64,000 nt of DNA from Exiguobacterium antarcticum DSM 14480 (GCF_000685865.1 NZ_JMKS01000003.1:1555001-1619000); one strand, 5' to 3'. Numbered from the stretch's first letter, positions 3,104 to 38,346 are shown. The notes: generated from the letters alone by a model not told the origin. Translations and numbers: made by a program.

Positions 3104-3178
3104 TCCGCAATAGCTCAGTGGTAGAGCAACCGGCTGTTAACCGGTAGGTCGTAGGTTCAAATCCTACTTGCGGAGCCA
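3104..3178 (+). tRNA. tRNA-Asn (GTT anticodon)
   Basis: Cloverleaf with acceptor TCCGCAA/TTGCGGA, D-arm start AGCTCAGTGG, anticodon loop CTGTTAA and T-loop TTCAAAT. CCA is encoded. First of seven tRNAs transcribed with the rRNA operon; no promoter is visible between 5S and this gene. Confidence 0.96.
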
Positions 3179-3180
3179 AT

Positions 3181-3255
3181 GGCCCGTTGGTCAAGCGGTT
3201 AAGACACCGCCCTTTCACGGCGGTATCACGGGTTCGATTCCCGTACGGGTCACCA
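3181..3255 (+). tRNA. tRNA-Glu (TTC anticodon)
   Basis: Acceptor GGCCCGT/ACGGGTC, anticodon loop CTTTCAC, T-loop TTCGATT, encoded CCA. Only two bases separate it from tRNA-Asn, so the two are processed from one precursor. Confidence 0.96.
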
Positions 3256-3266
3256 TTTCTTTTTTT

Positions 3267-3339
<73 letters not shown>

Positions 3340-3376
3340 CTGTTTTTTTTCAATTGTATAAGTTCCTAGACAAACT

Positions 3377-3460
3377 GGGGGGGTAGCGAAGTGGCTAAAC
3401 GCGGCGGACTGTAAATCCGCTCCCTCGGGTTCGGCGGTTCGAATCCGCCCCCCCCCACCA
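3377..3460 (+). tRNA. tRNA-Tyr (GTA anticodon)
   Basis: A class II tRNA with a long variable arm. The acceptor is seven G against seven C, the anticodon loop is CTGTAAA and CCA is encoded. Confidence 0.96.
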
Positions 3461-3464
3461 TGTC

Positions 3465-3537
3465 GAGCCATTAGCTCAGTTGGTAGAGCATCTGACTTTT
3501 AATCAGAGGGTCGCAGGTTCGAATCCTGCATGGCTCA
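3465..3537 (+). tRNA. tRNA-Lys (TTT anticodon)
   Basis: Acceptor GAGCCAT/ATGGCTC, anticodon loop CTTTTAA, T-loop TTCGAAT. CCA is not encoded. Confidence 0.96.
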
Positions 3538-3543
3538 TATTTT

Positions 3544-3615
3544 GCGGAAGTAGTTCAGTGGTAGAATACGACCTTGCCAAGGTCGGGGTCGCGGGTTCGA
3601 ATCCCGTCTTCCGCT
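3544..3615 (+). tRNA. tRNA-Gly (GCC anticodon)
   Basis: Acceptor GCGGAAG/CTTCCGC, anticodon loop TTGCCAA, T-loop TTCGAAT, discriminator T. CCA is not encoded. Confidence 0.96.
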
Positions 3616-3627
3616 TTTTGTTTTTGA

Positions 3628-3703
3628 GGGGCCTTAGCTCAGCTGGGAGAGCGCCTGCCTTGCACGCAGGAGGTCAGCGGTTCGATCCCGCTAGGCTCCA
3701 CCA
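3628..3703 (+). tRNA. tRNA-Ala (TGC anticodon)
   Basis: Acceptor GGGGCCT/AGGCTCC with a G-U pair, anticodon loop TTGCACG, encoded CCA. Last tRNA of the cluster, followed directly by a terminator hairpin. Confidence 0.96.
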
Positions 3704-24459: not shown

Positions 24460-24469
24460 ACTGAGAACG

Positions 24470-24502
24470 AAATCCCGCCTTTCATTCAGGCGGGATTTTT
24501 TT
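24470..24502 (+). terminator. Terminator after the peroxiredoxin gene
   Basis: AAATCCCGCCT pairs with AGGCGGGATTT, followed by a T run. Confidence 0.9.
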
Positions 24503-24612: not shown

Positions 24613-25578
24613 GTGTCTATGTATAAAATCGAGCCAGTATTCAAAGAACGGATTTGGGGTGGTCGTCGTCTTGAAGAGTTGTTTCATTTCGATTTACCGG
24701 CAGGATCAATCGGAGAATGCTGGACGGTTTCGGCACATCCGAGCGGACGAACTCCTTTAGCGGATGGTCCCTATCAAGGACAGACGTTAGATCAATTATG
24801 GCAGAATCACCGGACAAGTTTGTTTGGTCCATACGCATTGGATGCTTTTCCTTTACACGTCAAGCTGCTCGATTCCTCGTCATATTTATCCGTTCAAGTC
24901 CATCCGAATGATGCGGACGCCAAACGACTGGAAGGGGAACCGTACGGAAAAAATGAATGTTGGTATATCCTCGAGGCGAAGGAAGGGGCGGAAGTCATCG
25001 TCGGTCACCATCTGTCCTGTCGCGAAGAACTCGTGACGTGTGCTGAGCGGAAGGAGTGGGATGCCTGTCTTCGTCATCAGTCTGTCCGCAAAGGAGATTT
25101 CATCTACATTCCGAGTGGAACGATTCATGCGCTTGGTCCGGGAATCGTGTTGCTCGAAATTCAACAGATGAGTGACCGGACGTATCGACTGTATGATTAT
25201 GACCGTCTTGATGCGGATGGAAATCGACGTGAACTACACCTCGAAAAAGCAATCGCTGTCACGACGATTCCGGATGAACCGTTGACGATCCGACCGATTC
25301 AGGAGACGACGACTTCTGGGACGAAAACGACGTTACTGGAAGTCCCGTTCTTCACGGTCATCCATCATGACATCAAGGGGGCGGACTACTGCTTATCCAA
25401 CAGTCCGACGTTTCGGCTGCTCACCGTCGTGTCAGGTCATGGGGAATTGCGTTCGGCAAATCATTCTGAACAACGTCTCTTGCAAAAAGGGGATCAGTAT
25501 TTCATTCCCTGTTCAGCGGGGGAATACCGCATCTCCGGACAACTGGAGTGCGTGACAAGTGAGGTGTTTCCAAGTTAA
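24613..25578 (+). CDS. manA: Mannose-6-phosphate isomerase, class I
   Basis: Interconverts fructose-6-phosphate and mannose-6-phosphate, feeding GDP-mannose synthesis. The 321-residue cupin protein begins MYKIEPVFKERIWGG after two residues. The zinc-site segment is YLSVQVHPNDADAK, and GKNECWYILEA and IPSGTIHALG follow in family order. I chose GTG 24613, six bases after AAGGAG; ATG 24619 would be too far from that site. It converges with the GDP-mannose pyrophosphorylase gene, and the two together supply GDP-mannose for the glycan genes further right. Confidence 0.92.
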   Translation: MSMYKIEPVFKERIWGGRRLEELFHFDLPAGSIGECWTVSAHPSGRTPLADGPYQGQTLDQLWQNHRTSLFGPYALDAFPLHVKLLDSSSYLSVQVHPNDADAKRLEGEPYGKNECWYILEAKEGAEVIVGHHLSCREELVTCAERKEWDACLRHQSVRKGDFIYIPSGTIHALGPGIVLLEIQQMSDRTYRLYDYDRLDADGNRRELHLEKAIAVTTIPDEPLTIRPIQETTTSGTKTTLLEVPFFTVIHHDIKGADYCLSNSPTFRLLTVVSGHGELRSANHSEQRLLQKGDQYFIPCSAGEYRISGQLECVTSEVFPS

Positions 25579-25579
25579 A

Positions 25580-25606
25580 GGCACGTATCGCTTTTGCGAT
25601 ACGTGC
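25580..25606. terminator. Hairpin between convergent manA and manC
   Basis: GGCACGTATCGC and GCGATACGTGCC form a perfect 12-bp stem with loop TTTT. No long T tract follows. Confidence 0.65.
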
Positions 25607-25611
25607 CGCCG

Positions 25612-26946
25612 TTAATTCGAACCGAGTGAGATCGGAAGCGGATAGTTGTCTTCCTCCGTCCAGTCGATGGAGTATTTGATTTCGATCATAATCAAGTCAC
25701 TCAATGTCTTTAATGTATGCGGCACCTCGCGTGGAATGTGGACGACGGAAGTGGGACCAAGCAATTGATGTTCCCCGTCGATGATCGCTTCGGCTTGTCC
25801 TTGAAGAATGCTCCACGTCGAGTCTGTCTGAGCATGGTAATGATGACTGATCTGGTGGTTGGCTTGGATATGCAGACGACGTGTCACGGCATACCGTCCG
25901 TCTTCAAGTTGTTGTTGATGAAGAATCGTCGCATACCCCCAGCGTTTCCATTCAAATTGCGGGGGCAGTTCTTGATCGACAAGATAATCTTTAAGATGAG
26001 GCGTTTCATCTTTTGATGAAACGAGGACACCGTCGGGGCTGACCGAAACAATTAAATCGGTCAAGCCGATTCCGAGGACAGGCACTTGCATTTCATTGAC
26101 GATATGCGTATTAGTGGAATGGATCAATCGCGCATTGCCATGAATCGAACTCGGCATTTCTTCCGTCAGAGTATTCCAGGTCCCGAGATCTTTCCAGTAT
26201 CCGTCATACCGGTGGACAAACAGGTTGGTTGTTTTCTCGACGACGGCATAATCAAACGATGTTTTCTCAAGCAAGTCATACGCCGTTCGTAAGTCCTGAT
26301 ACGTCACAGGCACCTGTTGCTCGTTCAGTCGTTCCGTTAAGAAGTCAAGCCGGCAGGCGAATACCCCGCAATTCCACAACGCTCCTTGATCAATCAACTC
26401 GACTGCAGTCTCCAAGGATGGCTTTTCACGGAATTGTTGAACCGTAGACATCGGACTTGTAGATTCAGGAATAATATAGCCGTATTTCGACGTCGGATGA
26501 AGCGGTTCGACCCCCATCAAGTGAAGGGCATCGGGATGAGCCTGAACGGCCTCATCGAGCATAGAAAATCGTTCAAAAAAAGAAGCATCGACATAAGGGT
26601 CAACGGGCATGATGATGATTGTTTCTGTTGGATCAATCCGTTCTGCCAAGTAACTTGTTGCGAGCATGATGGCAGGAAACGTATCCCGCCGAGACGGTTC
26701 GTGGATGACGGACACCTTTGTGCCAAGCTGATGTTCAATTGCATCGAGCTGGGCTTCGGTCGTCGTGATGACGGTTCGATCCGCTAGACCACTTGTTTCT
26801 AACTGTTGAAACACCCGCTCCATCATCGATTGTTTTTGTCCGTCGGCATCTTCAAGAATCCGCAGGAATTGTTTGGAGTTTAAATCGTTCGACAGCGGCC
26901 AAAGTCGTTTTCCGGATCCACCTGATAATAAGAGAATATACATCAT
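25612..26946 (-). CDS. manC: Mannose-1-phosphate guanylyltransferase (GDP-mannose pyrophosphorylase)
   Basis: Makes GDP-mannose from mannose-1-phosphate and GTP. The 444 residues start MMYILLLSGGSGKRLWPLS, the nucleotidyltransferase signature GGxGxRLWPxS. DPYVDASFF and FREKPSLETA follow, and the C-terminal cupin half (LHIQANHQISHHYHAQTDSTW) is the type II mannose-6-phosphate isomerase-like domain of bifunctional ManC proteins. ATG 26946 or the adjacent ATG 26943 follows AAAGGGTG. Because a separate ManA is present, the isomerase half may be redundant. Only about 32 bases separate it from the divergent receiver-like gene. Confidence 0.9.
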   Translation of the reverse strand: MMYILLLSGGSGKRLWPLSNDLNSKQFLRILEDADGQKQSMMERVFQQLETSGLADRTVITTTEAQLDAIEHQLGTKVSVIHEPSRRDTFPAIMLATSYLAERIDPTETIIIMPVDPYVDASFFERFSMLDEAVQAHPDALHLMGVEPLHPTSKYGYIIPESTSPMSTVQQFREKPSLETAVELIDQGALWNCGVFACRLDFLTERLNEQQVPVTYQDLRTAYDLLEKTSFDYAVVEKTTNLFVHRYDGYWKDLGTWNTLTEEMPSSIHGNARLIHSTNTHIVNEMQVPVLGIGLTDLIVSVSPDGVLVSSKDETPHLKDYLVDQELPPQFEWKRWGYATILHQQQLEDGRYAVTRRLHIQANHQISHHYHAQTDSTWSILQGQAEAIIDGEHQLLGPTSVVHIPREVPHTLKTLSDLIMIEIKYSIDWTEEDNYPLPISLGSN

Positions 26947-26978
26947 CCAACACCCTTTCTGAACTGGAGGTTTTAAAG

Positions 26979-27590
26979 ATGGCACTGTACTTATTAGTTG
27001 ATGCGCATGAGCCGACAAGAAAGATTTTGCAACGAAAGTTACTGGAACGAAATCAGGAAGTACTGGAAGCTGAATCGGCAGAAGAGGCCTTATCGGTACT
27101 CGAAGTACAAGATGTTGATGTCATCATGACAGAATTGCGGTTGCCACAACTCGACGGTGTCGAACTGCTGAAAAAGGTCACGCAATTGTACCCGTTAACG
27201 AAACAGATTGTTCTGACCGACTACATGCAATTGCATACGTTACTCGCTGCCGTCAATTCCGGAAACATCAGTCGTTTGATGACAAAACCATTGAAAATTG
27301 ATGAAACGATTCTTCGCATCATGGAAAAGGTCGGAGCCGAAGTCGTTGAGACGAAACATCGAAAGAAAAATATTGGCGTCATGTTTAATGGGATTTTGAC
27401 CAATGCGAATCGTCCGTATTGTTTATTTTTTGAAGATGGAACGATTGTTGGCCGCCGTGCGTTGGAAATTCCGAATCAAGAAGCGCCGGATGATGAAATG
27501 AACGGCTTGCACCGTTTTGAGTTTCCGACGCAATTCGGAACCTATATCTTGTACCAATCAATGAATGGGACGGTCATGAAACACGTTTGA
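26979..27590 (+). CDS. Pseudo-receiver protein with unknown C-terminal domain
   Basis: A 203-residue protein whose first 120 residues have the response-regulator receiver fold. The usual phosphorylated aspartate is a glutamate (VIMTELRLP, residue 52), and the first acidic pair is DA (LLVDAHEP, 8-9) rather than DD. The switch threonine (VLTDY, 80) and lysine (LMTKP, 103) remain. It may be permanently in the active-like state. Residues 125-203 form a small beta-rich domain that I do not recognise (CLFFEDGTIVGRRALEI). It sits among glycan genes, divergent from manC, and its 3' end overlaps the convergent GT2 gene by 17 bases. ATG 26979 follows GGAGG. Confidence 0.82.
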   Translation: MALYLLVDAHEPTRKILQRKLLERNQEVLEAESAEEALSVLEVQDVDVIMTELRLPQLDGVELLKKVTQLYPLTKQIVLTDYMQLHTLLAAVNSGNISRLMTKPLKIDETILRIMEKVGAEVVETKHRKKNIGVMFNGILTNANRPYCLFFEDGTIVGRRALEIPNQEAPDDEMNGLHRFEFPTQFGTYILYQSMNGTVMKHV

Positions 27591-28440
27591 AGACAAGCGA
27601 CTCGACTCCGATGAAGCTGAGGCGGATGTACATGTAAATCACACCAGCAGCAAGAAGCGGATGGCGAACGTATTTTTTGAGATTTGTTTTGTGATACAAG
27701 ACCGGTCGGAAAAAGTACCAACGCTGTAATGCCTTTGTTAGTCCGCCGTCTTCGTTTTGAAGCGTCTTCGGCATGACGTCAAAGTAATAGCGTTTCTTTT
27801 GGAGCAGGTCGGTAAGTTCGACCTGTTTTTCATTGTGCCGGACGAAAGTGAAGGTCGCCCGCCGGATTTGTCCCCCTTGCTCCAAATAGCGGATGGTTGG
27901 TTGTGTTTCCTCAAAACTGATTTGCGTTGGATCAATTTCACCTGAAGTCACATAGGCGTCGAGCCGCCAAAAACGAGCGGCTTCAATCGAATTGGCATCG
28001 AGCTGATCCGTCGGAATATTAAACAAATTCCGTTCGAACACCTTGACCTGACTGAAAAAATTCGAATGGTCGCTGTATGCCTGTTCCGGGATGACAAGTG
28101 CTCCGATATCCGGGTGGGCTTCGAGGTACAACAAACAACTTTTCAGCATGTCATCCGAAAGCACCATGTCCGAATCGATGATGTACAGATACTCGACGTG
28201 GAGTGCTTTTAGACGATCGATAGCCGTTTTTCGCGCAATCCCGCGTTCACCATGCGGTAAAGCGATGACCTCAAAGCGTTCATCGTGTTGTGTTAATCGT
28301 CTGATCGTCTGAACCGTTTGGTCGGTCGATCCATCGTCGGCAATGATACAACGAAAAGGTGAAGCTTGGGCTTGGAGCGAACGAATCGTTTCCTCAATAA
28401 TGGCTTGATTTTGATACGTCGACATTGCGATTCCAATCAT
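27574..28440 (-). CDS. Glycosyltransferase family 2
   Basis: Inverting sugar transferase with a GT-A fold, 288 residues. It starts IGIAMSTYQNQAIIEETIRSL, with the nucleotide site IIADDGSTDQT and the metal motif in IIDSDMVLSDD (DxD). A C-terminal hydrophobic helix (LLAAGVIYMYIRLSFIGV) probably anchors it to the membrane. The start overlaps the end of the GT4 gene (ATGA-like overlap at 28437-28440), so the two are translated together. GDP-mannose or another nucleotide sugar could be the donor; the locus favours mannose. Confidence 0.87.
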   Translation of the reverse strand: MIGIAMSTYQNQAIIEETIRSLQAQASPFRCIIADDGSTDQTVQTIRRLTQHDERFEVIALPHGERGIARKTAIDRLKALHVEYLYIIDSDMVLSDDMLKSCLLYLEAHPDIGALVIPEQAYSDHSNFFSQVKVFERNLFNIPTDQLDANSIEAARFWRLDAYVTSGEIDPTQISFEETQPTIRYLEQGGQIRRATFTFVRHNEKQVELTDLLQKKRYYFDVMPKTLQNEDGGLTKALQRWYFFRPVLYHKTNLKKYVRHPLLAAGVIYMYIRLSFIGVESLVFKRVS

Positions 28441-29576
28441 ACATACTCCTCCTTCACATCAACTAGTGGAAGTTCGTTCTGGAGCCAATTTCGAAAGTGT
28501 TGACCTGTGTTATCCCAGTGCAGTGTCTGGGCGAAGCGATGTGCAGCATAACGAATCGTATCGTATTGTTCGGTGTCTTGAATGCAGGAACGCATTTCAG
28601 AAGCGAGTGCACCGGGCGACTGGGCAACTGTCATATAACCCGCCATCCCGTAATGGACGGCATCTCGTAAACCGGGGGCGTCATAGACGATCGTCGGTGT
28701 GCCGACTGCTGCCGCTTCGCTGACCGTCAAGCCCCAGCCTTCGCGTTTGGAAGGGAAGAGGAGTGCGGTCGCACGACTCATCCGTTCAAGCTTTTCCTCT
28801 GCGCTGACAAAGCCGAAGTACGTAATATCTCCCCGGATTTTTTCCGGGACAAGCGGGTCCAGCTGTTGTTGAACATAGCGCGCATCTTTTTTACCGATGA
28901 CCCAAAACTTCGCTGTCGGGAATTCTTGTTTCAAGATGACGAAGGCTTGAATGGCATCGTCGATTCCTTTATAGGCAGACATCCGTCCGACGTATAAAAA
29001 GGTCGGGACCGATTCTTTTGGTTGCCATTCCTCTTCTTTCCACGGAATGAAATCGAGTCCTTCGGGCAGAATCGTAATCTGTGGTTTAGAAAAACCGATG
29101 GAGCGTAAGTCATCCGCCGTCGACTGACTGACCGTCAAGGCACGTCCGTGACGGTACAGCTGAAGCCGGGGCGTCTCGGTCTGTTCACCGAGCCAGGCAT
29201 ACGGGCGCTTGACGTTGATCTGCCAGATTTCACGCGTGAACTGATGAATGAACAGGGCACGCTTAGCGCGTGGGACATACAACGGCGTGAAGAACTGATG
29301 CGTGTTGACCTGATCGACGACGAGATCGATCGAAGAGGCGTGTTTGTAATAGTAAGATGCCGCATACGGAATGACGGTTGCGAGCGTACCGTGGCGGACA
29401 TACGTGATGCCGTCTAAAAATTCGACGTCACGCCCCCCTTCAAAGGCGGGGGATAGATGCGTGATTGTATAGTCATCCGCGACACGGCGAAGCATTTCGT
29501 GTGTAAAGACCTCGGCACCACCGGCCTTCGGGTGTTTGATGTCACGCCACGATAAGAATAAGAGACGGGGTTTCAT
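28437..29576 (-). CDS. Glycosyltransferase family 4
   Basis: Retaining GT-B glycosyltransferase of 379 residues. It begins MKPRLLFLSWRDIKHPKAGGAEVFTHEML, the GT4 N-terminal glycine motif. The C-terminal half has FLYVGRMSAYKGIDDAIQA, then LLFPSKREGWGLTVSEAAAVGTP with the EGxGLxxxEA donor-binding motif. The ATG at 29576 follows GGAGGAG, which lies inside the preceding flippase gene. It overlaps that gene by four bases. Substrate unknown; part of the mannose-linked locus. Confidence 0.9.
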   Translation of the reverse strand: MKPRLLFLSWRDIKHPKAGGAEVFTHEMLRRVADDYTITHLSPAFEGGRDVEFLDGITYVRHGTLATVIPYAASYYYKHASSIDLVVDQVNTHQFFTPLYVPRAKRALFIHQFTREIWQINVKRPYAWLGEQTETPRLQLYRHGRALTVSQSTADDLRSIGFSKPQITILPEGLDFIPWKEEEWQPKESVPTFLYVGRMSAYKGIDDAIQAFVILKQEFPTAKFWVIGKKDARYVQQQLDPLVPEKIRGDITYFGFVSAEEKLERMSRATALLFPSKREGWGLTVSEAAAVGTPTIVYDAPGLRDAVHYGMAGYMTVAQSPGALASEMRSCIQDTEQYDTIRYAAHRFAQTLHWDNTGQHFRNWLQNELPLVDVKEEYV

Positions 29577-30760
29577 AAAAGCTCCTCCTTTTTCACAATC
29601 AATCGCTGTTTTGGCAAAATGAATCTCAGGACAAAGGCACTTCCTAACAAGACGATCGCTTGCCCGGTCAACCAAATTTCAACCGTTTGGCGGACGAACA
29701 AGAGGGAGAGGACCAATAAGACGAGAATCCCCCAAAACCATTTCAGATAGCTTGTCCGGTGTAGCGAAAATTGGACAAGTGCCTCGTACTGGATCAGCGT
29801 GATGCCGGCGTAGACGAGCACCATGTATTTGACATACTGTCCGGCTAAATCGTAGCCGTCTCCGAATAACCAGGGAATGAGATACGGGACAATCGTGACG
29901 TAAAAGATGACGGCACAGGCGAGCCCACTCAATAGAAACAGGTACAACTTACGTTCCCAAATGTGAAAGGACTGTTGGTGATTGAAACTGCTGAGACGCG
30001 GCAACAACAGTTGGGATAAGGAGAGTGCGACGAACAACAATAATTGACCGAACCGCAACGCAACGGAATAGTCTCCGGCAAATGTCGGGAAAAATCGTGT
30101 TACAAGAAGACTGTCTAGTGTAAAGAAAAGGGTCATGACGACTTGGGTGTGAATCAAATGCGTCAGACCGTTCCAACGGGTTGGACCGGTACTCTCTGGG
30201 AATGGTGTCTGAAGAAGGCTGACAAGATAAGCCATTAGCATCCCGATCAAGATAAAGGCTAAGGCAAGGGTTACGTTCGTATACTGAAGCAAAAGCCAGG
30301 TGGCGATCACTTTCGTTAACGATTCGACATAATAGGAAAGGTTCAGCGCGTAAAAACGTTCTTGTGCTTGAATGACACCACGCCTGAAAGATAATAAGAT
30401 ATGGAAAAAGACTGTAAGCACAACAAGAAGAAGGTTTATTCTGGTAAAAGGTAGAAGGATAGGTAAGACATACAGTAAGATAAGTAAAATGACTCCGACG
30501 ACAGCAAGCAACCGGTTTCGTAAAACACGATAATGATTCGTTAAATGTTGACTGAGGTCGCGTGTGACCGTCCACTGCAAGGCGCTTCCGATGATAAGGA
30601 GCAGACCCAGTAAAGCGAGATAACCGTTTAAAAATCCATAGTCGACACTCGATAATTGACGGGCTAACAACAAGTGGTAGGCATAGTTGACGATGTTCAA
30701 TAAAATGTCTAGAATTGGAAAAATTAAAATCACTGCATGACGGTTTAGAAAACCAGTCAT
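29573..30760 (-). CDS. Wzx-type polysaccharide flippase
   Basis: Multi-spanning membrane protein of 395 residues with about 10-12 helices, of the MATE/MVF-like polysaccharide exporter family. It begins MTGFLNRHAVILIFPILDILLNIVNYAYHLLLARQLSSVDYGFLNGYLALLG, where the LSxxDYGxxN segment is typical of Wzx-type flippases (the text is my reading of the start). ATG 30760 follows GGAGGTG. It would move a lipid-linked saccharide across the membrane. It is first in the transcript flippase-GT4-GT2. The divergent GT2 fusion gene starts only 51 bases away. Confidence 0.82.
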   Translation of the reverse strand: MTGFLNRHAVILIFPILDILLNIVNYAYHLLLARQLSSVDYGFLNGYLALLGLLLIIGSALQWTVTRDLSQHLTNHYRVLRNRLLAVVGVILLILLYVLPILLPFTRINLLLVVLTVFFHILLSFRRGVIQAQERFYALNLSYYVESLTKVIATWLLLQYTNVTLALAFILIGMLMAYLVSLLQTPFPESTGPTRWNGLTHLIHTQVVMTLFFTLDSLLVTRFFPTFAGDYSVALRFGQLLLFVALSLSQLLLPRLSSFNHQQSFHIWERKLYLFLLSGLACAVIFYVTIVPYLIPWLFGDGYDLAGQYVKYMVLVYAGITLIQYEALVQFSLHRTSYLKWFWGILVLLVLSLLFVRQTVEIWLTGQAIVLLGSAFVLRFILPKQRLIVKKEELL

Positions 30761-30811
30761 CAGAACACCTCCCATCAATCGGTTTGAATGATACGGAAAG
30801 GATGAATCAGC

Positions 30812-31966
30812 ATGAACCAAGGTCACATCGCTATTTTCACGGATCATGGACGACAAATTTCCTACGAAACTCTGATTCCTTATTATCCAATACTCTTTTA
30901 CACACAACCGGGTAAATGTCCTGCCTCCTTCGAACAAATCGCTATTACAGAAGTTCAGAGTGCGGAAGAAGAACATGATATCAAGCTGTATATCGTCGAC
31001 TATCAGATGGGTGCAGACGAGTTGAAAATCTTAAATCAAATCCGTAGTATCCGCTCACGGGCAAAAATTTTGCTGATCAAGGATGTCGTACGGATGAAAG
31101 GCGATTTCCCGTATGAAGCGGTAAAAGGGGATGGGGTTCTCCGTACCTTTTCCTATCGAGCGAGCTATCCGAATGAATTGTTTGCTGAAATCCAACATAT
31201 CATCCATCCTGAATATCCCATTTTAAAAGATACTATAGCCTTTATATTACCAATATTTAACGAAGAGAAACGTTTTATGTATGTAAAACAATTTTTAGAA
31301 GCATTAGCGGAACTAATCAGTGAAGATTACATTCATGCTTCGATCAACTTTTTTGATGATGCGTCTTCCGATCAATCGAAAGCGTTGTTGCAGGATTATC
31401 GTTCCATCGTCATGGACGCGACGGATACATTGTTCACGGTCGGGTATCTCGAAGTCCACCAGGTGGAACGGAATACCCGGAAAGCCGGGTTGTTCATCGA
31501 AGGGATGAAAAACATCTCGAGTGATTATTATGTATTTGTCGATGCCGATAACTCGTTTAAGACGGAAGACATCGCCCGTTTACTGACGATTGCCCAAAAT
31601 GATTATTATGATATCGTCATTGGGACAAAAGATTTGACGATTGAAGACCGTGGACTTGTCCGGCGTCTGCTCAGTTTCGCCAAACGAAATCTGACACGGA
31701 CCTTTTTACCGAAAGGGGTCACCGATTCGCAGACCGGTCTAAAAATCATCAATCGTCGTGTCGTCCCGCGGATCCTGCCGTATTTAAACGTCGAGAGTGG
31801 ACTGGCGATTGATCTTGAATTGATGTATGCCGCGAAAAAAGAACGGTTGCGTGTGTTCCAACAGCCCGTGACCTGTATCGAGCGGGAAGGATCACACGTC
31901 AATCTGGTCAAGGACTCGATTGCTTTTTTAAAGACGATGGTTGCCTTGTATCAACGGCATCGTTAA
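30812..31966 (+). CDS. Receiver-like domain fused to glycosyltransferase family 2
   Basis: A 384-residue fusion. Residues 1-135 look like a receiver fold (IKLYIVDYQMGADELKILNQI, then AKILLIKD) in which a few receiver motifs are visible but the acidic pocket and lysine are not convincing. Residues 142-384 form a GT2 domain: IAFILPIFNEEKR, FFDDASSDQSK, and the DxD motif in YVFVDADNSF. TDSQTGLKIINRR matches the dolichol-phosphate-mannose-synthase-like subgroup. No membrane helix is seen. The ribosome site is AAAGGATG. It lies in the glycan locus and is divergent from the flippase. The fusion is unusual. Confidence 0.8.
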   Translation: MNQGHIAIFTDHGRQISYETLIPYYPILFYTQPGKCPASFEQIAITEVQSAEEEHDIKLYIVDYQMGADELKILNQIRSIRSRAKILLIKDVVRMKGDFPYEAVKGDGVLRTFSYRASYPNELFAEIQHIIHPEYPILKDTIAFILPIFNEEKRFMYVKQFLEALAELISEDYIHASINFFDDASSDQSKALLQDYRSIVMDATDTLFTVGYLEVHQVERNTRKAGLFIEGMKNISSDYYVFVDADNSFKTEDIARLLTIAQNDYYDIVIGTKDLTIEDRGLVRRLLSFAKRNLTRTFLPKGVTDSQTGLKIINRRVVPRILPYLNVESGLAIDLELMYAAKKERLRVFQQPVTCIEREGSHVNLVKDSIAFLKTMVALYQRHR

Positions 31967-32012
31967 ATACCCTGTACCGACCCGCTGCATATCGAGTCGG
32001 TACAGGGTATTT
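31967..32012. terminator. Bidirectional terminator between convergent genes
   Basis: AATACCCTGTACCGAC pairs with GTCGGTACAGGGTATT across a 14-base loop. Confidence 0.9.
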
Positions 32013-32013
32013 G

Positions 32014-35000
32014 TCATGTCTTGGATTTTTTAGGCCGACGAATCGTTGAGGACAGTTTCTCGCGGAACCGCTGACGAACCGCTCCGAACCGTTGACCTGT
32101 CATCCACCAGATCAGCAGCCCGCTCAAGGGGAACGCGAGCAGCAGGACGGTCAGTCCGACATAATAGACGGGACGTAAGACGACAGTGACATCGGCGGTT
32201 GCTTGAGTGGACCGGTACAACTGACTGACGCCGTTCAGCGCGATGTTACCCCGCATCGGCGCGACACCGTCACGCAACTCAAAGAGCGGTGTCGGCGAAT
32301 CGTTGACCGTAAAACGACCAAGGGGCTCCTGACTCGTAATATGTCGATTCATCAACGACGGGGTGACACCAAGTTTCTCGGCTGGTGTTTGAGCGAACAG
32401 CGGTTTTCCGGTCTGCTCCGCCATCACAAACTGATCGACGAGGATCAGTTGATCGTAAGGGAGAAACTCCAGATTTTTAAGCTGTAAGCTGCCCGCCTTT
32501 TTCTCATTACCGCGTGTCCAGATGTGGAGTTGCATCCGCACCGCCTTTTTCGGAGGAATGATCATCTGTTCGTAATGATTCCAGCGGCTCTTTTTGTCTT
32601 CCTCGACTTCATTGATGAAATCGGTCCCGATGACACGGTCTTTTTCATCCAGATAAAAGACTTTCAAGTGACGTTGCCGCACGTTTTTACTGACCGCATC
32701 AAACTGCAACAAGTATTCATGGTTCGGACGTGCCTTGATTTTTTGAGAGGCGAAGATATACCAGTCACACGAACAAGTTGCTTCATATTCCATTCGATAC
32801 GTACCGTCTTTTTCGCTCCCGCTAAACATATCGTCCGTGATCGAGACACATGTCGCACAATTGGCGGCTGCTTCCGGTTCCGTAAGTGGCTTGTCGGTGA
32901 CGATTTCACTCGGATCAAACTGATGCAGATCGTCCATCGTAACGAGTGACGGAACGGCACTCGCATACACCAGTTCAATCTCATAACGACCGCCCATCAA
33001 CGGAATGTCTTCCAGCGTAATCTGATGAAGTGCCGAGTAGACATCCGGCAAAGATTCGAGTTGATACGGAAAATCCCGGTGCAACGGATCGAAGGTCACG
33101 GTTTCTTGACCAATCGCTTGTTTTCGGATGTCCGGCGTCTTGAAATCCTGCGCTGTCAAGACACGCCGGTAGATGATTTTTTTCCCATCGCGCAGCAAGA
33201 CGGTCAACCGGCCATTTGTGTTCGTCGGTCGTGTCGCTTTCAGCTGGATGTCATAGGTTCCATCCTCAGCAACATCAATCGTTCGGCGTAACGTTCCTTT
33301 TTGAGCAGCTACACCTTTTCCGAAACTGAATCCGGGATAGTTACGTTCGGATTGAAGGTGTCCCTCGTAATCAAAGGCGTTTTCTGCTTCGAGCACCATC
33401 AACGTTTTGGTGATTGGAAGTTTCTCTTCCAGTCGTTCCTGAACTTTCGTCCATTCTGTTTTTGGAATCAAGACGATGTTTTGAACGGCATTAAAGCCGG
33501 ACGTATTCGTGATGCGGAGTGTCGAACTTGTGTTGTCTGCGACGAAGTTTCCGAGAGGCACCCAAACGAGTTTTGCGCCTGCCGCTTGCTTCGTCTTGAC
33601 AGAGAATGTTTGGTCGTTGAATTCAAAGTCAAGCTGGCCGCCGTTTTGGTTCAATAAGACACGTGCGTAACCGGCATAACGACCTCGGGTAGTCTCTTTT
33701 GTCATCTCAATCGTGTTCGGTACCATATAGTCCTCGAAACTGAAAATCTTGATATCGTGGACCCACCAATACGTCTTCCGTTCCGGACGCTGAAAACTCA
33801 GCAAATCAATCCGCATCGTCTTGGCGTCTTTCGGGGTGACGTACTCGCCTTGAAGATGGATTGCGTCAAGATCACCGGAGTCGCGGGGAGCGACGACATA
33901 CGTCTGATTCAGTTCACGATCTTTGGCATCGTAAAACCGGACTTTGACGTGCAACCGGTCAACACCACGACCGGACGCTGTGATGTCAAACCGGTACGCA
34001 TTGTTCGGTAAGGCGTCCAGCTTGCCGGATTTCGCGACCTGCCAAATGTATTTCGGATCACCCTCTGCGACTTCCGCCCGCAGGACAGGCAGGTTATTTT
34101 CCTTTGACAAAGGATTAGGGGATAAGTCGACGATGTCCGGATTATCCGCTTTGAAAAATGTCTCGTCCTCAAGCATCGAGTTGAACGACGCGACTTGTTT
34201 CGTCTTCAACTGATCGAGTTTATAGACGGGGGCATCTATCTTTGCCGAGGCGAAAGACAAGCCGATTCCATCCCCGAAGTCGAGATCGAATGATGGATTG
34301 CTGATTCCTTGTGTCCGTAAATACCAGCGCCAATCACTGTTTGCCAAAAACGTTTTGCCCCAGTTCAGGAACGAGTTGGCGGAGTCGATCGCGTCAAACG
34401 GTTTCCAGAAGTATTGTTCCGGTACCTGACTCAGTAACACATCGTTTTCTTCCGCCATCTCGATGATGTCGTCTTTCTTTAACCACGATAAGCCGTCTTG
34501 ATGGGCTTGGGTCGCATACAAAATGGATTGGGGACCAAGTTTATAATCATCCAAAGTCGAGAAAGTGACTGACCGTTCGAGACCGTATGGGGTCAGAATC
34601 AACTGTGGAACAGTCCGACTGTCAAGTGGCTCGATTAAATCGAATAACGTAAACAGCCCCACTTGTTTTGTCGCGAGCAGATCGTGTTGGGTGGCGAGAA
34701 TCTTTTTATTGAAGGCTTGCCGCTCCTTCATGCCCGTATATTCCGTCCGGTACGCGAACTGTTGCAGACCAAACGCCTGTGCAATTTGCCCGGCTTGATC
34801 GGAGCGGCCCGTATCGAGCAAATATTGCATGAACGTCATCATGTAGCGGACCGTCTGGGTGGTACCTTCGTGATGAAAAACCGTGTTTGCCTGCGAACCG
34901 TAGACTTGGACGTCCCCGGTCGCTTTGGTTTCGCCGTCCGGATGCGGATTTTTATTCCAGGTCGGTGTCGCGACCCCCGTACTCGGTTGTGTCATTTCAT

Positions 35001-36474
35001 CTGCAATCGGAAACTGAAGCCATTTCCCGTCAATCAGTTCTTGAACGACGGTATATTCTTTCGGCATCTTCACCGGATGATAAAAACCTTCCATGTAGAC
35101 GGCGCGATACGGCCAGAAAAACAACCCGAGGGCGATGACAGTCGTTCCAATCGCAAGCAGGCGGTAAACCGGAAGCGGCAACGTTTTGGAAGGGCGGTTG
35201 AACACGGTCGCGAGGCTTGAAGCGAGCAACAAACTATAGCTGACCATCAGCAATCCGACTAACTTGTTGGGGTCACGAAACATGGCGCCGATCAGCGGAG
35301 TCTTCGTGACGAACAAGACAAAGAGGTCGGCGACCTGCTCGTGAGTCCCTGTCGCAAAAACAATCAACGGGATGCTGAGACCGGTGAAGAATAACAGGAT
35401 TGGCTGACGATAGGAGACAAACGCACCAAACGAAATCAACAACAGAATAACGCCGCCGCCTAACCAGAAACTGAGCGGTAACGTCGTCAGATCGAACATC
35501 GGCCACCAGTAGCTCGTTAAATAAAACACATTCGTCCACGAAGAATGACGGCTGAACAACATCAACGTATCAGAGACATTGATGTTGTGTTGCGAAGCTT
35601 GCGATCCGGTCAAGATGGAACCGACATACATGAAAAACCAGTATGAATTAAACAATAGGAAAACAAGAGAAAAGGCAATCGTGGAGCGGACATAAAAACC
35701 AATCAACGGTTTAATGATCTGCTCTTTCCGACGTGTCCAAAAGGTCTTCGCAAAAATCAGGGCGACCATGATGCCCATGTAGATCAAGGAGAAGAAAAAG
35801 TAATGGATGCCGGCTGCCATGAAAGCAAAGACGACGGATAGTCCGGTAATGTCGATCCATGTCCGGCGCGACAGCCGGTCGGATAATGAAAAGTTCGGAT
35901 TGAATTGTTCACGGAACTTGGGATCAAATATATTAAAAAACAACAACAAGGCGAGTGGGAAGACGGAGTAGCCACATAAGAGATAAATGTGCTGGATCCG
36001 CGTGATGACCCATGGATTCAAGGCATAAAACAAAGCGGCGATGCCAAAAGCGACGAGTGATAAAAAAGAAAAGTGAGGTGAGACGTAGACCGAATGCAAC
36101 CGTTTTGTTAAAGCGAACATCGAAACAGCGGACACGATCAACAAGCCAAAAATAAACGACTTGATCAAAATCGGACCGGACGCACCAAACAGTAAACTGA
36201 GCAGATAAAAGGGAAAGATGTAAATCAGACGGGCGACATTCAACAAGGTCGTCGTACTCCAGCGGTTATTCCAGGCGCCAAAAATTTCCTCGAGATAACG
36301 ATTGGACGAGAGACCAAATGACATATCACTGAAGACGACCATTCCCGGTTTCAGCAGGGGGGCGCCGTACAAAACAATCAAAACGAGAACGCCGGTTAAC
36401 ACGAGAGCATCTTTGTGATAGGTTCGACCAAATCTGCGGGCAACATCGAGTAGTGATTGTAGTGAGGTCTGCAT
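32014..36474 (-). CDS. Giant GT-C-like membrane glycosyltransferase (AftD-type)
   Basis: A 1486-residue protein. The first 480 residues hold about 11-13 membrane helices, with an acidic residue in the first outer loop (VVFSDMSFG), as in GT-C enzymes that use lipid-linked sugars. The remaining 950 residues are extracytoplasmic and beta-rich, including carbohydrate-binding-like parts (LEAENAFDYEG, then DVAEDGTYDIQLKATRP), and a last helix near 1440 anchors the C-terminus. The layout resembles AftD/DUF3367 arabinofuranosyltransferases of actinobacteria and the YfhO group. ATG 36474 follows AGGAG; TTG 36477 is also open. It is probably the polymerising or transferring enzyme of the locus. Donor and product are unknown. 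Confidence 0.75.
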   Translation of the reverse strand: MQTSLQSLLDVARRFGRTYHKDALVLTGVLVLIVLYGAPLLKPGMVVFSDMSFGLSSNRYLEEIFGAWNNRWSTTTLLNVARLIYIFPFYLLSLLFGASGPILIKSFIFGLLIVSAVSMFALTKRLHSVYVSPHFSFLSLVAFGIAALFYALNPWVITRIQHIYLLCGYSVFPLALLLFFNIFDPKFREQFNPNFSLSDRLSRRTWIDITGLSVVFAFMAAGIHYFFFSLIYMGIMVALIFAKTFWTRRKEQIIKPLIGFYVRSTIAFSLVFLLFNSYWFFMYVGSILTGSQASQHNINVSDTLMLFSRHSSWTNVFYLTSYWWPMFDLTTLPLSFWLGGGVILLLISFGAFVSYRQPILLFFTGLSIPLIVFATGTHEQVADLFVLFVTKTPLIGAMFRDPNKLVGLLMVSYSLLLASSLATVFNRPSKTLPLPVYRLLAIGTTVIALGLFFWPYRAVYMEGFYHPVKMPKEYTVVQELIDGKWLQFPIADEMTQPSTGVATPTWNKNPHPDGETKATGDVQVYGSQANTVFHHEGTTQTVRYMMTFMQYLLDTGRSDQAGQIAQAFGLQQFAYRTEYTGMKERQAFNKKILATQHDLLATKQVGLFTLFDLIEPLDSRTVPQLILTPYGLERSVTFSTLDDYKLGPQSILYATQAHQDGLSWLKKDDIIEMAEENDVLLSQVPEQYFWKPFDAIDSANSFLNWGKTFLANSDWRWYLRTQGISNPSFDLDFGDGIGLSFASAKIDAPVYKLDQLKTKQVASFNSMLEDETFFKADNPDIVDLSPNPLSKENNLPVLRAEVAEGDPKYIWQVAKSGKLDALPNNAYRFDITASGRGVDRLHVKVRFYDAKDRELNQTYVVAPRDSGDLDAIHLQGEYVTPKDAKTMRIDLLSFQRPERKTYWWVHDIKIFSFEDYMVPNTIEMTKETTRGRYAGYARVLLNQNGGQLDFEFNDQTFSVKTKQAAGAKLVWVPLGNFVADNTSSTLRITNTSGFNAVQNIVLIPKTEWTKVQERLEEKLPITKTLMVLEAENAFDYEGHLQSERNYPGFSFGKGVAAQKGTLRRTIDVAEDGTYDIQLKATRPTNTNGRLTVLLRDGKKIIYRRVLTAQDFKTPDIRKQAIGQETVTFDPLHRDFPYQLESLPDVYSALHQITLEDIPLMGGRYEIELVYASAVPSLVTMDDLHQFDPSEIVTDKPLTEPEAAANCATCVSITDDMFSGSEKDGTYRMEYEATCSCDWYIFASQKIKARPNHEYLLQFDAVSKNVRQRHLKVFYLDEKDRVIGTDFINEVEEDKKSRWNHYEQMIIPPKKAVRMQLHIWTRGNEKKAGSLQLKNLEFLPYDQLILVDQFVMAEQTGKPLFAQTPAEKLGVTPSLMNRHITSQEPLGRFTVNDSPTPLFELRDGVAPMRGNIALNGVSQLYRSTQATADVTVVLRPVYYVGLTVLLLAFPLSGLLIWWMTGQRFGAVRQRFREKLSSTIRRPKKSKT

Positions 36475-36571: not shown

Positions 36572-36608
36572 CAAGCAGGCTCCTCCGTCTGAAGGAGGAG
36601 CCTGCTTG
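36572..36608 (-). terminator. Terminator of the chemoreceptor gene
   Basis: AAGCAGGCTCCTCC pairs perfectly with GGAGGAGCCTGCTT; on the minus strand GCATTTTTG follows. Confidence 0.85.
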
Positions 36609-36615
36609 ATTTAGG

Positions 36616-38142
36616 TTACCGATCGATATGATTGGTCAATTCATCAACCAATTGTTCCAACGAACTTGTCATCTGACCGAGTGATTGGGTCATCGTTTCA
36701 AATTCGTGTTGGACGGTCGTTTGCTGTTCGAGTGAGACGGCAGTCGACTCAATGCCGTACCGGACTTCAAGCGAAGCGGCTCGGGTCGTCTCCATCCGTT
36801 GTTCGATATCGAGCATCTGGACACCGACTCCTTGACGCGCTGTTTGAATCGAGTTGATGCTTTGTTCGACCTCCTGTACCAGTTGCGTGATGTCAGAAAA
36901 TGTCTGCCGGACACGCTTGGTCATCTGTCGGTTTTCCGACAGTGTCGTCGTATAACTGGCTGCCGTTTCCTTGATTTGATCGGTATCCGCAATCAATGCC
37001 TGTAAAACTTCCGTCACTTCATTGGCATAACTGCGCGACTGGACGGCAAGGTGACCAACTTCCGTCGCGACGACGGCAAAGCCACGTCCGGCATCACCGG
37101 CACGTGCCGCTTCGATGGCTGCATTTAACGCTAGCAAGTTCGTCTGACCGGCAATCGCTTCCAGATTCGCCAGGATTTTTTGGATTTTATCGGACCGACC
37201 GGCCATGGCGGTGATGGAAGTATGCAGACCATTCGTCGATTCGACCATCGCTTCGACCCGGCGATCCATCAGATGCATTTCTTCATTTCCGGTCAAAGCG
37301 GTTTTCGTCATATTTTCCGTCGTTGTGGCCGTCCGTGCCATTTTCGCCTGAATCGTTGCGATAGCCGCATTGACCTGATGCAATTGATCTGTTCCTTGTT
37401 GCATCGATTGGTGTTGTCCGTCGGCAGAGTCAACAATCGGCGCAATCGCAGTCGCAATTTGATTGGTCGCTTCGACCGATTGGACAGCGGCTTGTTGTAA
37501 ATGCCTCGTATTGGTTTTTAAACTACCGACCAGGGATTCAATCTGCTGACTGACATTCGTGATCAGTTTCGTCGCATCCGCTTCGCGGCGTGATGCCGCC
37601 TGACGTTCCTTATTCTGAACAGCGATTTGAATGATGAGCGCAGCACTCGTCAAAATCAGGAAGACAGCATGAATCATCAGGATACTGAACGGATAACCGG
37701 CTGTACCGCAAATCAACGCCGGTACAAAAAAGAATCCGGCAAAATGTTGAACGGCGAACAGAACGGTACTGACAAGAATCAAATCAATCCGACGGAAGTA
37801 GGCAATCAAGGCCAACACCATAAAAATTGAGAAATGGTATTCGACGAGTCCGTTTCCGCCGGCGACAATCGACATACTGGAGAAAGTTAACGTCACCGTC
37901 AACAAAAGCGGTACGTTTTTACTGCGCGGGCGCATTCGGTACAAGACTGTAGCAGCAAGCAAACAAATGACCGGTAACAAAGCAATCCAAGTCAGAGCGA
38001 TTGGTGAGGCGGCACTGACGTTTCCACGAATGATTTGATAGCCGTCAGCAAAAGTGGTGAATCGGTGTAAAACATGAACGATGAGTGACAAGATGACAAC
38101 AAATGAACTAATCCCAAGCATAAGCTGATTCCGGCGTTTCAT
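36616..38142 (-). CDS. Methyl-accepting chemotaxis protein
   Basis: Chemoreceptor of 508 residues. The N-terminal half has about six membrane helices (residues 8-190) rather than the common two-helix sensor with a periplasmic domain. A cytoplasmic coiled coil with the signalling tip follows: [35 protein letters not shown]. No HAMP domain is evident between membrane part and signalling domain. It probably senses a signal within the membrane or energy state. ATG 38142 is preceded by GGAGGAA at a rather long spacing of about 11 bases. No flagellar genes are nearby. Confidence 0.88.
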
Positions 38143-38346
38143 AAAATAAAATTCCTCCAATTTTTAGTTGCAGCTGAAATAAAGCACGAATGCACACGCT
38201 GAATGTATCTCACTATCGGTTGGCCATTTCAGATTGTTTAGCTTCAAGATGTTTAAAATAAAATTAAATCTTAAAATAGGAAATCAAGGATAAACAAACA
38301 CGATGTGGGGTATAGAAATGCATTGAGACTTGTAGGAGGAACGCGT

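What the first reader, a model, noticed from the sequence alone, without database searches (positions are those of the whole stretch)
24613..36474. Mannose-linked surface-glycan locus with an AftD-like giant enzyme and two receiver-like modules
Seen: manA and manC (GDP-mannose supply), two GT2 genes, GT4, a Wzx-type flippase, a 1486-residue GT-C-like protein with a large beta-rich outer part, a stand-alone pseudo-receiver and a receiver-like-GT2 fusion, all contiguous. Known: AftD-type proteins build actinobacterial arabinan-containing glycans and are not part of standard Bacillota wall synthesis; receiver-like domains in glycan enzymes are uncommon. Inference: the locus makes a mannose-rich glycan whose synthesis or length is set by receiver-like modules. 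I could not recall a described system of this composition.
Basis: partly seen in the sequence, partly recalled or inferred. Interest (0 to 1): 0.78.

Follow-up and report, generated by a model that had tools for sequence, protein, structure and literature searches.

The report
Glycan locus with built-in signalling receivers
A block of sugar-polymer genes in Exiguobacterium, found again in distant Paenibacillus-like bacteria, carries bacterial 'receiver' signalling modules, one of them fused to an enzyme that probably makes the lipid-linked sugar, so signals may control surface sugar building directly rather than through gene switches.

Summary
In Exiguobacterium the genes manA, manC, stand-alone receiver (psRR), GT2, GT4, Wzx-type flippase, receiver-GT2 fusion (RRGT2) and a 1486-residue membrane protein form one unit. 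psRR, RRGT2 and the giant are intact in exactly the same 17 of 38 family genomes, in fixed order and orientation, and decayed together in one more. The block recurs around 40-43%-identical giants in one f22 and eight f4 (Paenibacillaceae-like) genomes; there it also carries kinase-type genes and ordinary response regulators. A thermophile-like genus keeps the giant, GT4, GT2 and another GT2, but no receivers.

psRR is an aspartate-less receiver in Exiguobacterium: Asp is Glu in 17/17, while all eight far orthologues have the complete phosphorylation site, seven of them beside a kinase-like gene. The RRGT2 N-domain is a degenerate receiver. Its GT2 domain resembles polyprenyl-phosphate sugar synthases (GtrB, ArnC, DPMS).

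'AftD-like' fails by sequence: neither AftD (PF11847) nor YfhO (PF09586) matches the giant. Membrane layout and invariant acidic residues suggest an unassigned GT-C-type family. 'Mannose-rich' is unproven.

[quoted passage not shown] New variant of a known kind; function inferred.

The parts
24613..25578 (+). manA, mannose-6-phosphate isomerase
   Evidence: TIGR00218 above cut-off; next to the block in all 11 intact g1 loci and 4 of 6 g2 loci; no hit at the site in 7 locus-less genomes
25612..26943 (-). manC-like mannose-1-phosphate guanylyltransferase with cupin domain
   Evidence: PF00483, PF07883, TIGR01479 below curated cut-off; present in 17/17 Exiguobacterium-family loci and all 8 f4 loci
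26979..27590 (+). psRR: stand-alone aspartate-less receiver plus about 90-residue C-terminal domain
   Evidence: Response_reg 1.6e-15; Glu52 at the phospho-Asp site in 17/17 Exiguobacterium-family copies, canonical Asp in 8/8 far orthologues
27574..28440 (-). GT2a, family-2 glycosyltransferase with one C-terminal hydrophobic segment
   Evidence: PF00535 1.3e-20; 51-55% identical in far loci, 36% in G782/G899
28437..29576 (-). GT4 glycosyltransferase
   Evidence: PF00534 9e-29; overlaps GT2a by 4 bases; survives alone at the locus site in six genomes that lack the rest
29573..30760 (-). Wzx-type flippase, multi-TM
   Evidence: weak PF01943 7.7e-4, many hydrophobic segments, homologues at the same place in far loci
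30812..31216 (+). RRGT2 N-terminal degenerate receiver domain
   Evidence: hhalign against receivers score 30.0, 0 of 100 column-shuffled decoys reach it; weak FleQ pseudo-receiver hits in far members; beta/alpha order in the model, mostly pLDDT 75-85 with weaker stretches
31217..31966 (+). RRGT2 GT2 domain, probable polyprenyl-phosphate sugar synthase
   Evidence: NCBIfam PpgS, ArnC and AglJ among the best sub-threshold models; fold matches to GtrB, ArnC, DPMS and mannosylglycerate synthase; ArnC by profile in PDB sequences, 8e-6
32014..36474 (-). giant GT-C-like membrane protein, 1486 aa: roughly 12 N-terminal TM helices, about 976-residue outer part, one C-terminal TM
   Evidence: hydropathy and 21-sequence alignment with invariant Asp50 and Glu62 in the first outer loop; homologues in f22, f4 and f141
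36572..36608 (.). strong hairpin between the giant and the neighbouring MCP gene, boundary of the locus
   Evidence: 15-pair stem; MCP is also present in locus-less genomes

Best explanation
[quoted passage not shown] RRGT2 charges a polyprenyl phosphate (probably undecaprenyl phosphate) with a sugar, possibly mannose from the GDP-mannose made by ManA/ManC. The Wzx-type flippase carries the lipid-linked sugar or oligosaccharide outward, GT4 and GT2a add sugars on the inside, and the giant protein transfers sugar on the outer face and holds the acceptor with its outer domains. The receiver fused to RRGT2 and the stand-alone receiver psRR set the output of the pathway, most simply by receiver-receiver contact that turns RRGT2 up or down. 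In Paenibacillaceae-like relatives psRR can be phosphorylated, presumably by the kinase-like protein encoded in the locus; in Exiguobacterium no kinase lies in the locus and Asp became Glu, which would hold psRR in an active-like state. Shown: gene content, linkage, receiver identity, residue states, constraint. Inferred: enzyme reactions, sugar, direction of flipping, receiver control.
For: Linkage: psRR, RRGT2 and giant intact in the same 17 of 38 genomes, order and strands fixed, joint decay in G021. Far recurrence with about 40% identity over the full giant. In f4, the HATPase protein, p138 or its counterpart, and psRR occur together in 7 of 8 loci and are missing together in G607. psRR: five phosphorylation-site residues complete in 8/8 far copies; Glu in 17/17 Exiguobacterium-family copies, Thr and Lys kept. 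RRGT2 N-domain receiver ancestry. GT2 domain like GtrB/ArnC/DPMS. Giant: TM layout, invariant Asp50/Glu62 in outer loop 1. dN/dS 0.03-0.27 in both receiver proteins' signalling domains where computable. Known scheme GT-A plus flippase (GtrA- or Wzx-type) plus GT-C with carbohydrate-binding outer domains: PMC8035078.
Against: No structure of the giant could be obtained (pLDDT 46), so GT-C is argued from layout and conserved acids only. The RRGT2 model is low-confidence outside the N-domain (mean 59.5). The sugar is not fixed: the best RRGT2 models include GalNAc and formamido-arabinose synthases, and manC is missing from the G130 and f141 loci. No initiating phosphoglycosyltransferase is in the block. 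The f4 and G130 loci also hold DNA-binding response regulators, so signalling there may be transcriptional. Nothing shows that psRR touches RRGT2.
Confidence: 0.55

Rival explanations
1. An ordinary surface-polysaccharide locus in which the receiver modules are only transcriptional or scaffold leftovers: psRR is a relic of a two-component system lost in Exiguobacterium, and the RRGT2 N-domain is a structural or membrane-docking domain with no signalling role.
For: RRGT2 N-domain lacks Ser/Thr and Lys of the active site in Exiguobacterium and Asp is Ala in two f4 copies; DNA-binding response regulators (OmpR type, LytTR) sit in far loci; no kinase homologue was seen in the Exiguobacterium loci.
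Against: psRR has no recognised DNA-binding domain. Both receivers are under purifying selection, Glu52, Thr80 and Lys103 are invariant in Exiguobacterium, and the fusion is kept in every far Bacilli locus that could be read.
Confidence: 0.25
2. The giant is not a sugar transferase but a lipid or glycan handling membrane protein (export, anchoring or length control), and the flippase plus GTs follow a Wzx-dependent route with a polymerase or ligase elsewhere.
For: No GT-C family matches the giant; its only curated hint is a sub-threshold match to MmpA trehalose lipid delivery protein (5e-5).
Against: Invariant Asp and Glu in the first outer loop across 21 homologues and the TM-core plus giant outer part layout; constant company of GT2a, GT4 and a second GT2, down to the f141 loci without receivers.
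Confidence: 0.2
3. The locus builds the S-layer glycan or the cell-wall polymer that holds S-layer proteins (a statement about the product, compatible with the best explanation).
For: SLH-domain proteins flank four of the nine far loci.
Against: No SLH gene was seen beside the Exiguobacterium, G130 or f141 loci, though neighbours there were not searched for SLH systematically; SLH genes are common in Paenibacillaceae.
Confidence: 0.15

Closest known systems
Multi-component transmembrane glycosylation systems (CsbB-GtcA-YfhO; GacI-GacK-GacL of Streptococcus pyogenes), PMC8035078
   Same: Cytoplasmic polyprenyl-phosphate sugar synthase, flippase (Wzx type in Gac) and large outer-face GT-C enzyme
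   Different: Donor synthase carries a receiver; separate receiver and, in relatives, kinase genes in the locus; giant is in no known GT-C family; extra GT4/GT2a and manC
AftD arabinofuranosyltransferase of actinobacteria (PF11847)
   Same: Overall layout: many TM helices and very large outer part
   Different: No sequence or profile match; host lineage and donor system differ
YfhO family (PF09586)
   Same: Multi-TM protein with large outer part, paired with a polyprenyl-phosphate GT2
   Different: No Pfam or profile-profile match; canonical YfhO occurs in four g2 genomes that lack this locus
Aspartate-less / pseudo-receivers (PMC12632262, PMC4395418)
   Same: psRR and the RRGT2 domain lack conserved site residues; Glu is the commonest replacement of Asp
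   Different: Here the likely output is a glycan-lipid enzyme, and orthologues with the intact site and a neighbouring kinase-like gene exist
Archaeal REC-glycosyltransferase fusions such as MTH_548 (PMC5847659)
   Same: Receiver domain fused to a GT2-superfamily enzyme
   Different: BcsA-like PF13641 enzyme, one or two receivers, three genera of Methanobacteriaceae; not the ArnC/DPMS type

Membership tests
AftD (GT-C_AftD, PF11847) | Match to the family model | tested here: not met
   No hit for any of 13 giants up to E=1; the family search of the own genome finds only a 7.7-bit match elsewhere while the Corynebacterium control rings
AftD (GT-C_AftD, PF11847) | GT-C fold | tested here: inconclusive
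   Model of residues 2-1018 too poor (pLDDT 46)
YfhO (PF09586) | Match to the family model | tested here: not met
   None in own genome; hhalign with four YfhO proteins 0.2%
GT-C glycosyltransferases in general | Conserved acidic residues in the first outer loop after TM1 | tested here: met
   Asp50 and Glu62 invariant in 21 homologues, between hydrophobic segments 23-41 and 80-98
Polyprenyl-phosphate glycosyltransferase (GtrB/ArnC/DPMS type GT2) | Fold and sequence similarity of the GT2 domain | tested here: met
   Polyprenyl-linked matches 5ekp, 9bhe, 5mlz, 9ep0 (Z about 14, rmsd about 4), ArnC 8e-6 by profile; soluble sugar transferases such as mannosylglycerate synthase score as high, and the model is low-confidence here, so specificity is open
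Polyprenyl-phosphate glycosyltransferase (GtrB/ArnC/DPMS type GT2) | Transfer to polyprenyl phosphate | not testable with these tools
   Needs enzyme assay
Receiver domain, psRR | PF00072 match | tested here: met
   1.6e-15, above cut-off
Aspartate-less receiver (ALR), psRR of Exiguobacterium | No Asp at the phosphorylation site | tested here: met
   Glu in 17/17
Receiver domain, RRGT2 N-terminus | Sequence or fold match to receivers | tested here: met
   hhalign above all 100 decoys, FleQ-like weak hits, beta/alpha order in a mostly pLDDT 75-85 domain; Pfam Response_reg itself gives no hit
Multi-component transmembrane glycosylation system | Donor synthase, flippase and outer-face GT-C encoded together | tested here: inconclusive
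   All three candidates are linked in every readable far Bacilli locus, but GT-C and flippase roles rest on weak family matches
Multi-component transmembrane glycosylation system | Sugar added to a cell-surface polymer | not testable with these tools
   Needs glycan analysis

The most novel reading that the evidence does not exclude
A non-transcriptional two-component output: a phosphorylatable stand-alone receiver directly controls a receiver-fused polyprenyl-phosphate sugar synthase, and in Exiguobacterium the switch has been fixed by an Asp-to-Glu change after loss of the kinase; the giant founds a new GT-C family.
Probability: 0.35. Interest if true: 0.78.

Novelty: new variant of a known kind. 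Interest (0 to 1): 0.6.

Why it matters
How pseudo-receivers work is an open question (PMC12632262). This locus supplies orthologous pairs of the same protein, one with an intact phosphorylation site next to a kinase-like gene and one with Glu and no kinase gene in the locus, acting in the same pathway, so the phosphomimic idea can be tested directly. It also links signal transduction to the lipid-sugar step of surface glycan synthesis without an obvious DNA-binding step for psRR, and defines a 1400-1500-residue membrane protein family that current family models miss.

Tried and rejected
Giant structure by AlphaFold2: pLDDT 46; its Foldseek hits are chance-level beta-sandwich matches and are not used. 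No GT-C entry appeared there, which means nothing for a model this poor. PDB sequence search with the giant profile: no relative. p138, the small protein between the kinase-like gene and psRR in f4, looks receiver-like by eye but fails the profile test (28 of 100 decoys score as high); left unassigned. VIA-align of the RRGT2 model reports only the GT2 part (137-358), so it says nothing on the receiver. Viral contigs and plasmids hold no RRGT2 relative. MCP at 36616-38160 as part of the locus: rejected, present in locus-less genomes and absent in some carriers. Recent horizontal gain in the window: GC 0.44-0.51 like the flanks.

Full report
WHAT IS THERE. The window lies in an Exiguobacterium genome: RRGT2 from Exiguobacterium sp. 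KRL4 is 100% identical. The finding's genes are all present at the stated place and are read from both strands: manA +, manC -, psRR +, GT2a -, GT4 -, wzx -, RRGT2 +, giant -. GT2a, GT4 and wzx overlap by a few bases, as in an operon. Hairpins at 24469-24499, 25580-25607 and 36572-36608 mark the ends. GC content resembles the surroundings.

IT IS A UNIT. In 38 genomes of the family, intact psRR, RRGT2 and giant occur in the same 17, in two genus-level groups. Order and strands from manC to giant are identical in all 17, although the flanking genes differ between the two groups. In G021 psRR carries a stop, wzx and giant are fragments and RRGT2 is gone. In seven g1 genomes without the locus the same site was read: six keep a single GT4 there and one keeps none of the block. 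A tree of GT4 proteins places the six lone GT4s inside the Exiguobacterium locus clade (95/97 support), so loss of the rest is the simplest history; long branches make the number of losses unsure. Pairwise dN/dS is 0.01-0.27 for every part where it could be computed, including both receiver domains.

FAR RELATIVES. Around them lie GT2a, GT4, wzx and RRGT2 in every locus whose contig reaches that far, psRR in 8 of 9, and manC in all 8 f4 loci but not in G130. These loci add signalling genes: an OmpR-type regulator, PAS histidine kinases, a membrane protein with a C-terminal HATPase domain (weak Pfam match), and in G130 an Hpt protein, a LytTR regulator and a PAS kinase. The HATPase protein, small protein p138 (or its counterpart in G400) and psRR are all present in seven f4 loci and all absent in G607, as expected if they work together. 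A phylum-wide sample adds five genomes of one genus, f141/g284. In the two read (G782, G899) the giant is accompanied by GT4, GT2a, a multi-TM protein and a GT2; in G782 that GT2 aligns end to end with the RRGT2 enzyme domain (22% identity, E 6e-5) and has no receiver. The glycosylation core therefore exists without receivers, which look like an addition within Bacilli.

THE RECEIVERS. psRR is a clear receiver. In all 17 intact Exiguobacterium-family copies the phosphorylated Asp is Glu and one residue of the acidic pair is lost, while Thr and Lys remain; all 8 far orthologues have the complete site. By the published definition (PMC12632262) the first set is aspartate-less receivers, and Glu there is a plausible phosphomimic. 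The RRGT2 N-domain has no Pfam Response_reg hit, but three lines agree that it is a decayed receiver: profile comparison with receivers scores 30.0 against a best of 18.5 in 100 column-shuffled decoys; two far members weakly hit the FleQ pseudo-receiver family, E 0.01 and 0.18; and the predicted N-domain, mostly at pLDDT 75-85 with weaker stretches near residues 31-50 and 91-100, has the receiver order of strands and helices. Some far members keep Lys and Thr, two have Ala for Asp.

THE ENZYMES. The RRGT2 enzyme domain is closest, below family cut-offs, to polyprenyl-phosphate sugar synthases, and its model matches GtrB, ArnC and dolichyl-phosphate mannose synthase, though mannosylglycerate synthase scores as well. 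The giant has about 12 hydrophobic segments in its first 455 residues, a 976-residue outer part and one last segment; 171 columns are invariant in 21 homologues, among them Asp50 and Glu62 in the first outer loop. It matches neither AftD nor YfhO. Its structure could not be predicted.

HOW IT PROBABLY WORKS. The gene set fits the known scheme of cytoplasmic donor-lipid synthesis, flipping, and transfer on the outer face by a GT-C enzyme with carbohydrate-binding outer domains (PMC8035078). What is new is that the donor-lipid enzyme carries a receiver and is always accompanied by signalling genes in Bacilli. I infer that psRR acts on RRGT2, because psRR has no recognised DNA-binding domain and RRGT2 offers a receiver as partner; this is not shown. 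The alternative, that far loci are controlled only by their DNA-binding regulators, stays open. The sugar is not established.

KNOWN OR NEW. Receiver-glycosyltransferase fusions are reported for methanogenic archaea with a different enzyme type (PMC5847659); the paper searches made here found no description of this locus, but the library is open-access only. I file it as a new variant of a known kind, with an unassigned giant family.

Noticed in passing
L182-L187, site between the peroxiredoxin-like and Zn-peptidase genes: Six g1 genomes without the locus keep one lone, fast-evolving GT4 at the site; its tree position inside the locus clade suggests loss of the other genes and reuse of the GT4.
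   Followed up: partly
L104:3654-6212, L106:48-2960, L138:5222-8191, L141:4077-7400: SLH-domain (S-layer type) proteins flank four of nine far loci.
   Followed up: partly
L104:17719-18132 and equivalents in six other f4 loci: Small conserved protein p138 between the kinase-like gene and psRR, no family match; looks receiver-like by eye but fails a profile test.
   Followed up: yes
G130 C12, positions 18080-20545 of L102+L103 joined: Flippase and GT4 lie in one uninterrupted 821-codon reading frame, a natural fusion of neighbours that are separate elsewhere.
   Followed up: no
L189-L192: Canonical YfhO genes occur in four g2 genomes that lack this locus; in at least G015, G007 and G019 a GT2 gene lies next to them.
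   Followed up: no
L102:6117-10557: Beside the G130 locus: a trypsin/NACHT/pentapeptide protein next to a metallo-beta-lactamase fold protein, a pair that resembles defence genes.
   Followed up: no
window 3104-3703: Seven tRNA genes in a row (Asn, Glu, Thr, Tyr, Lys, Gly, Ala).
   Followed up: no
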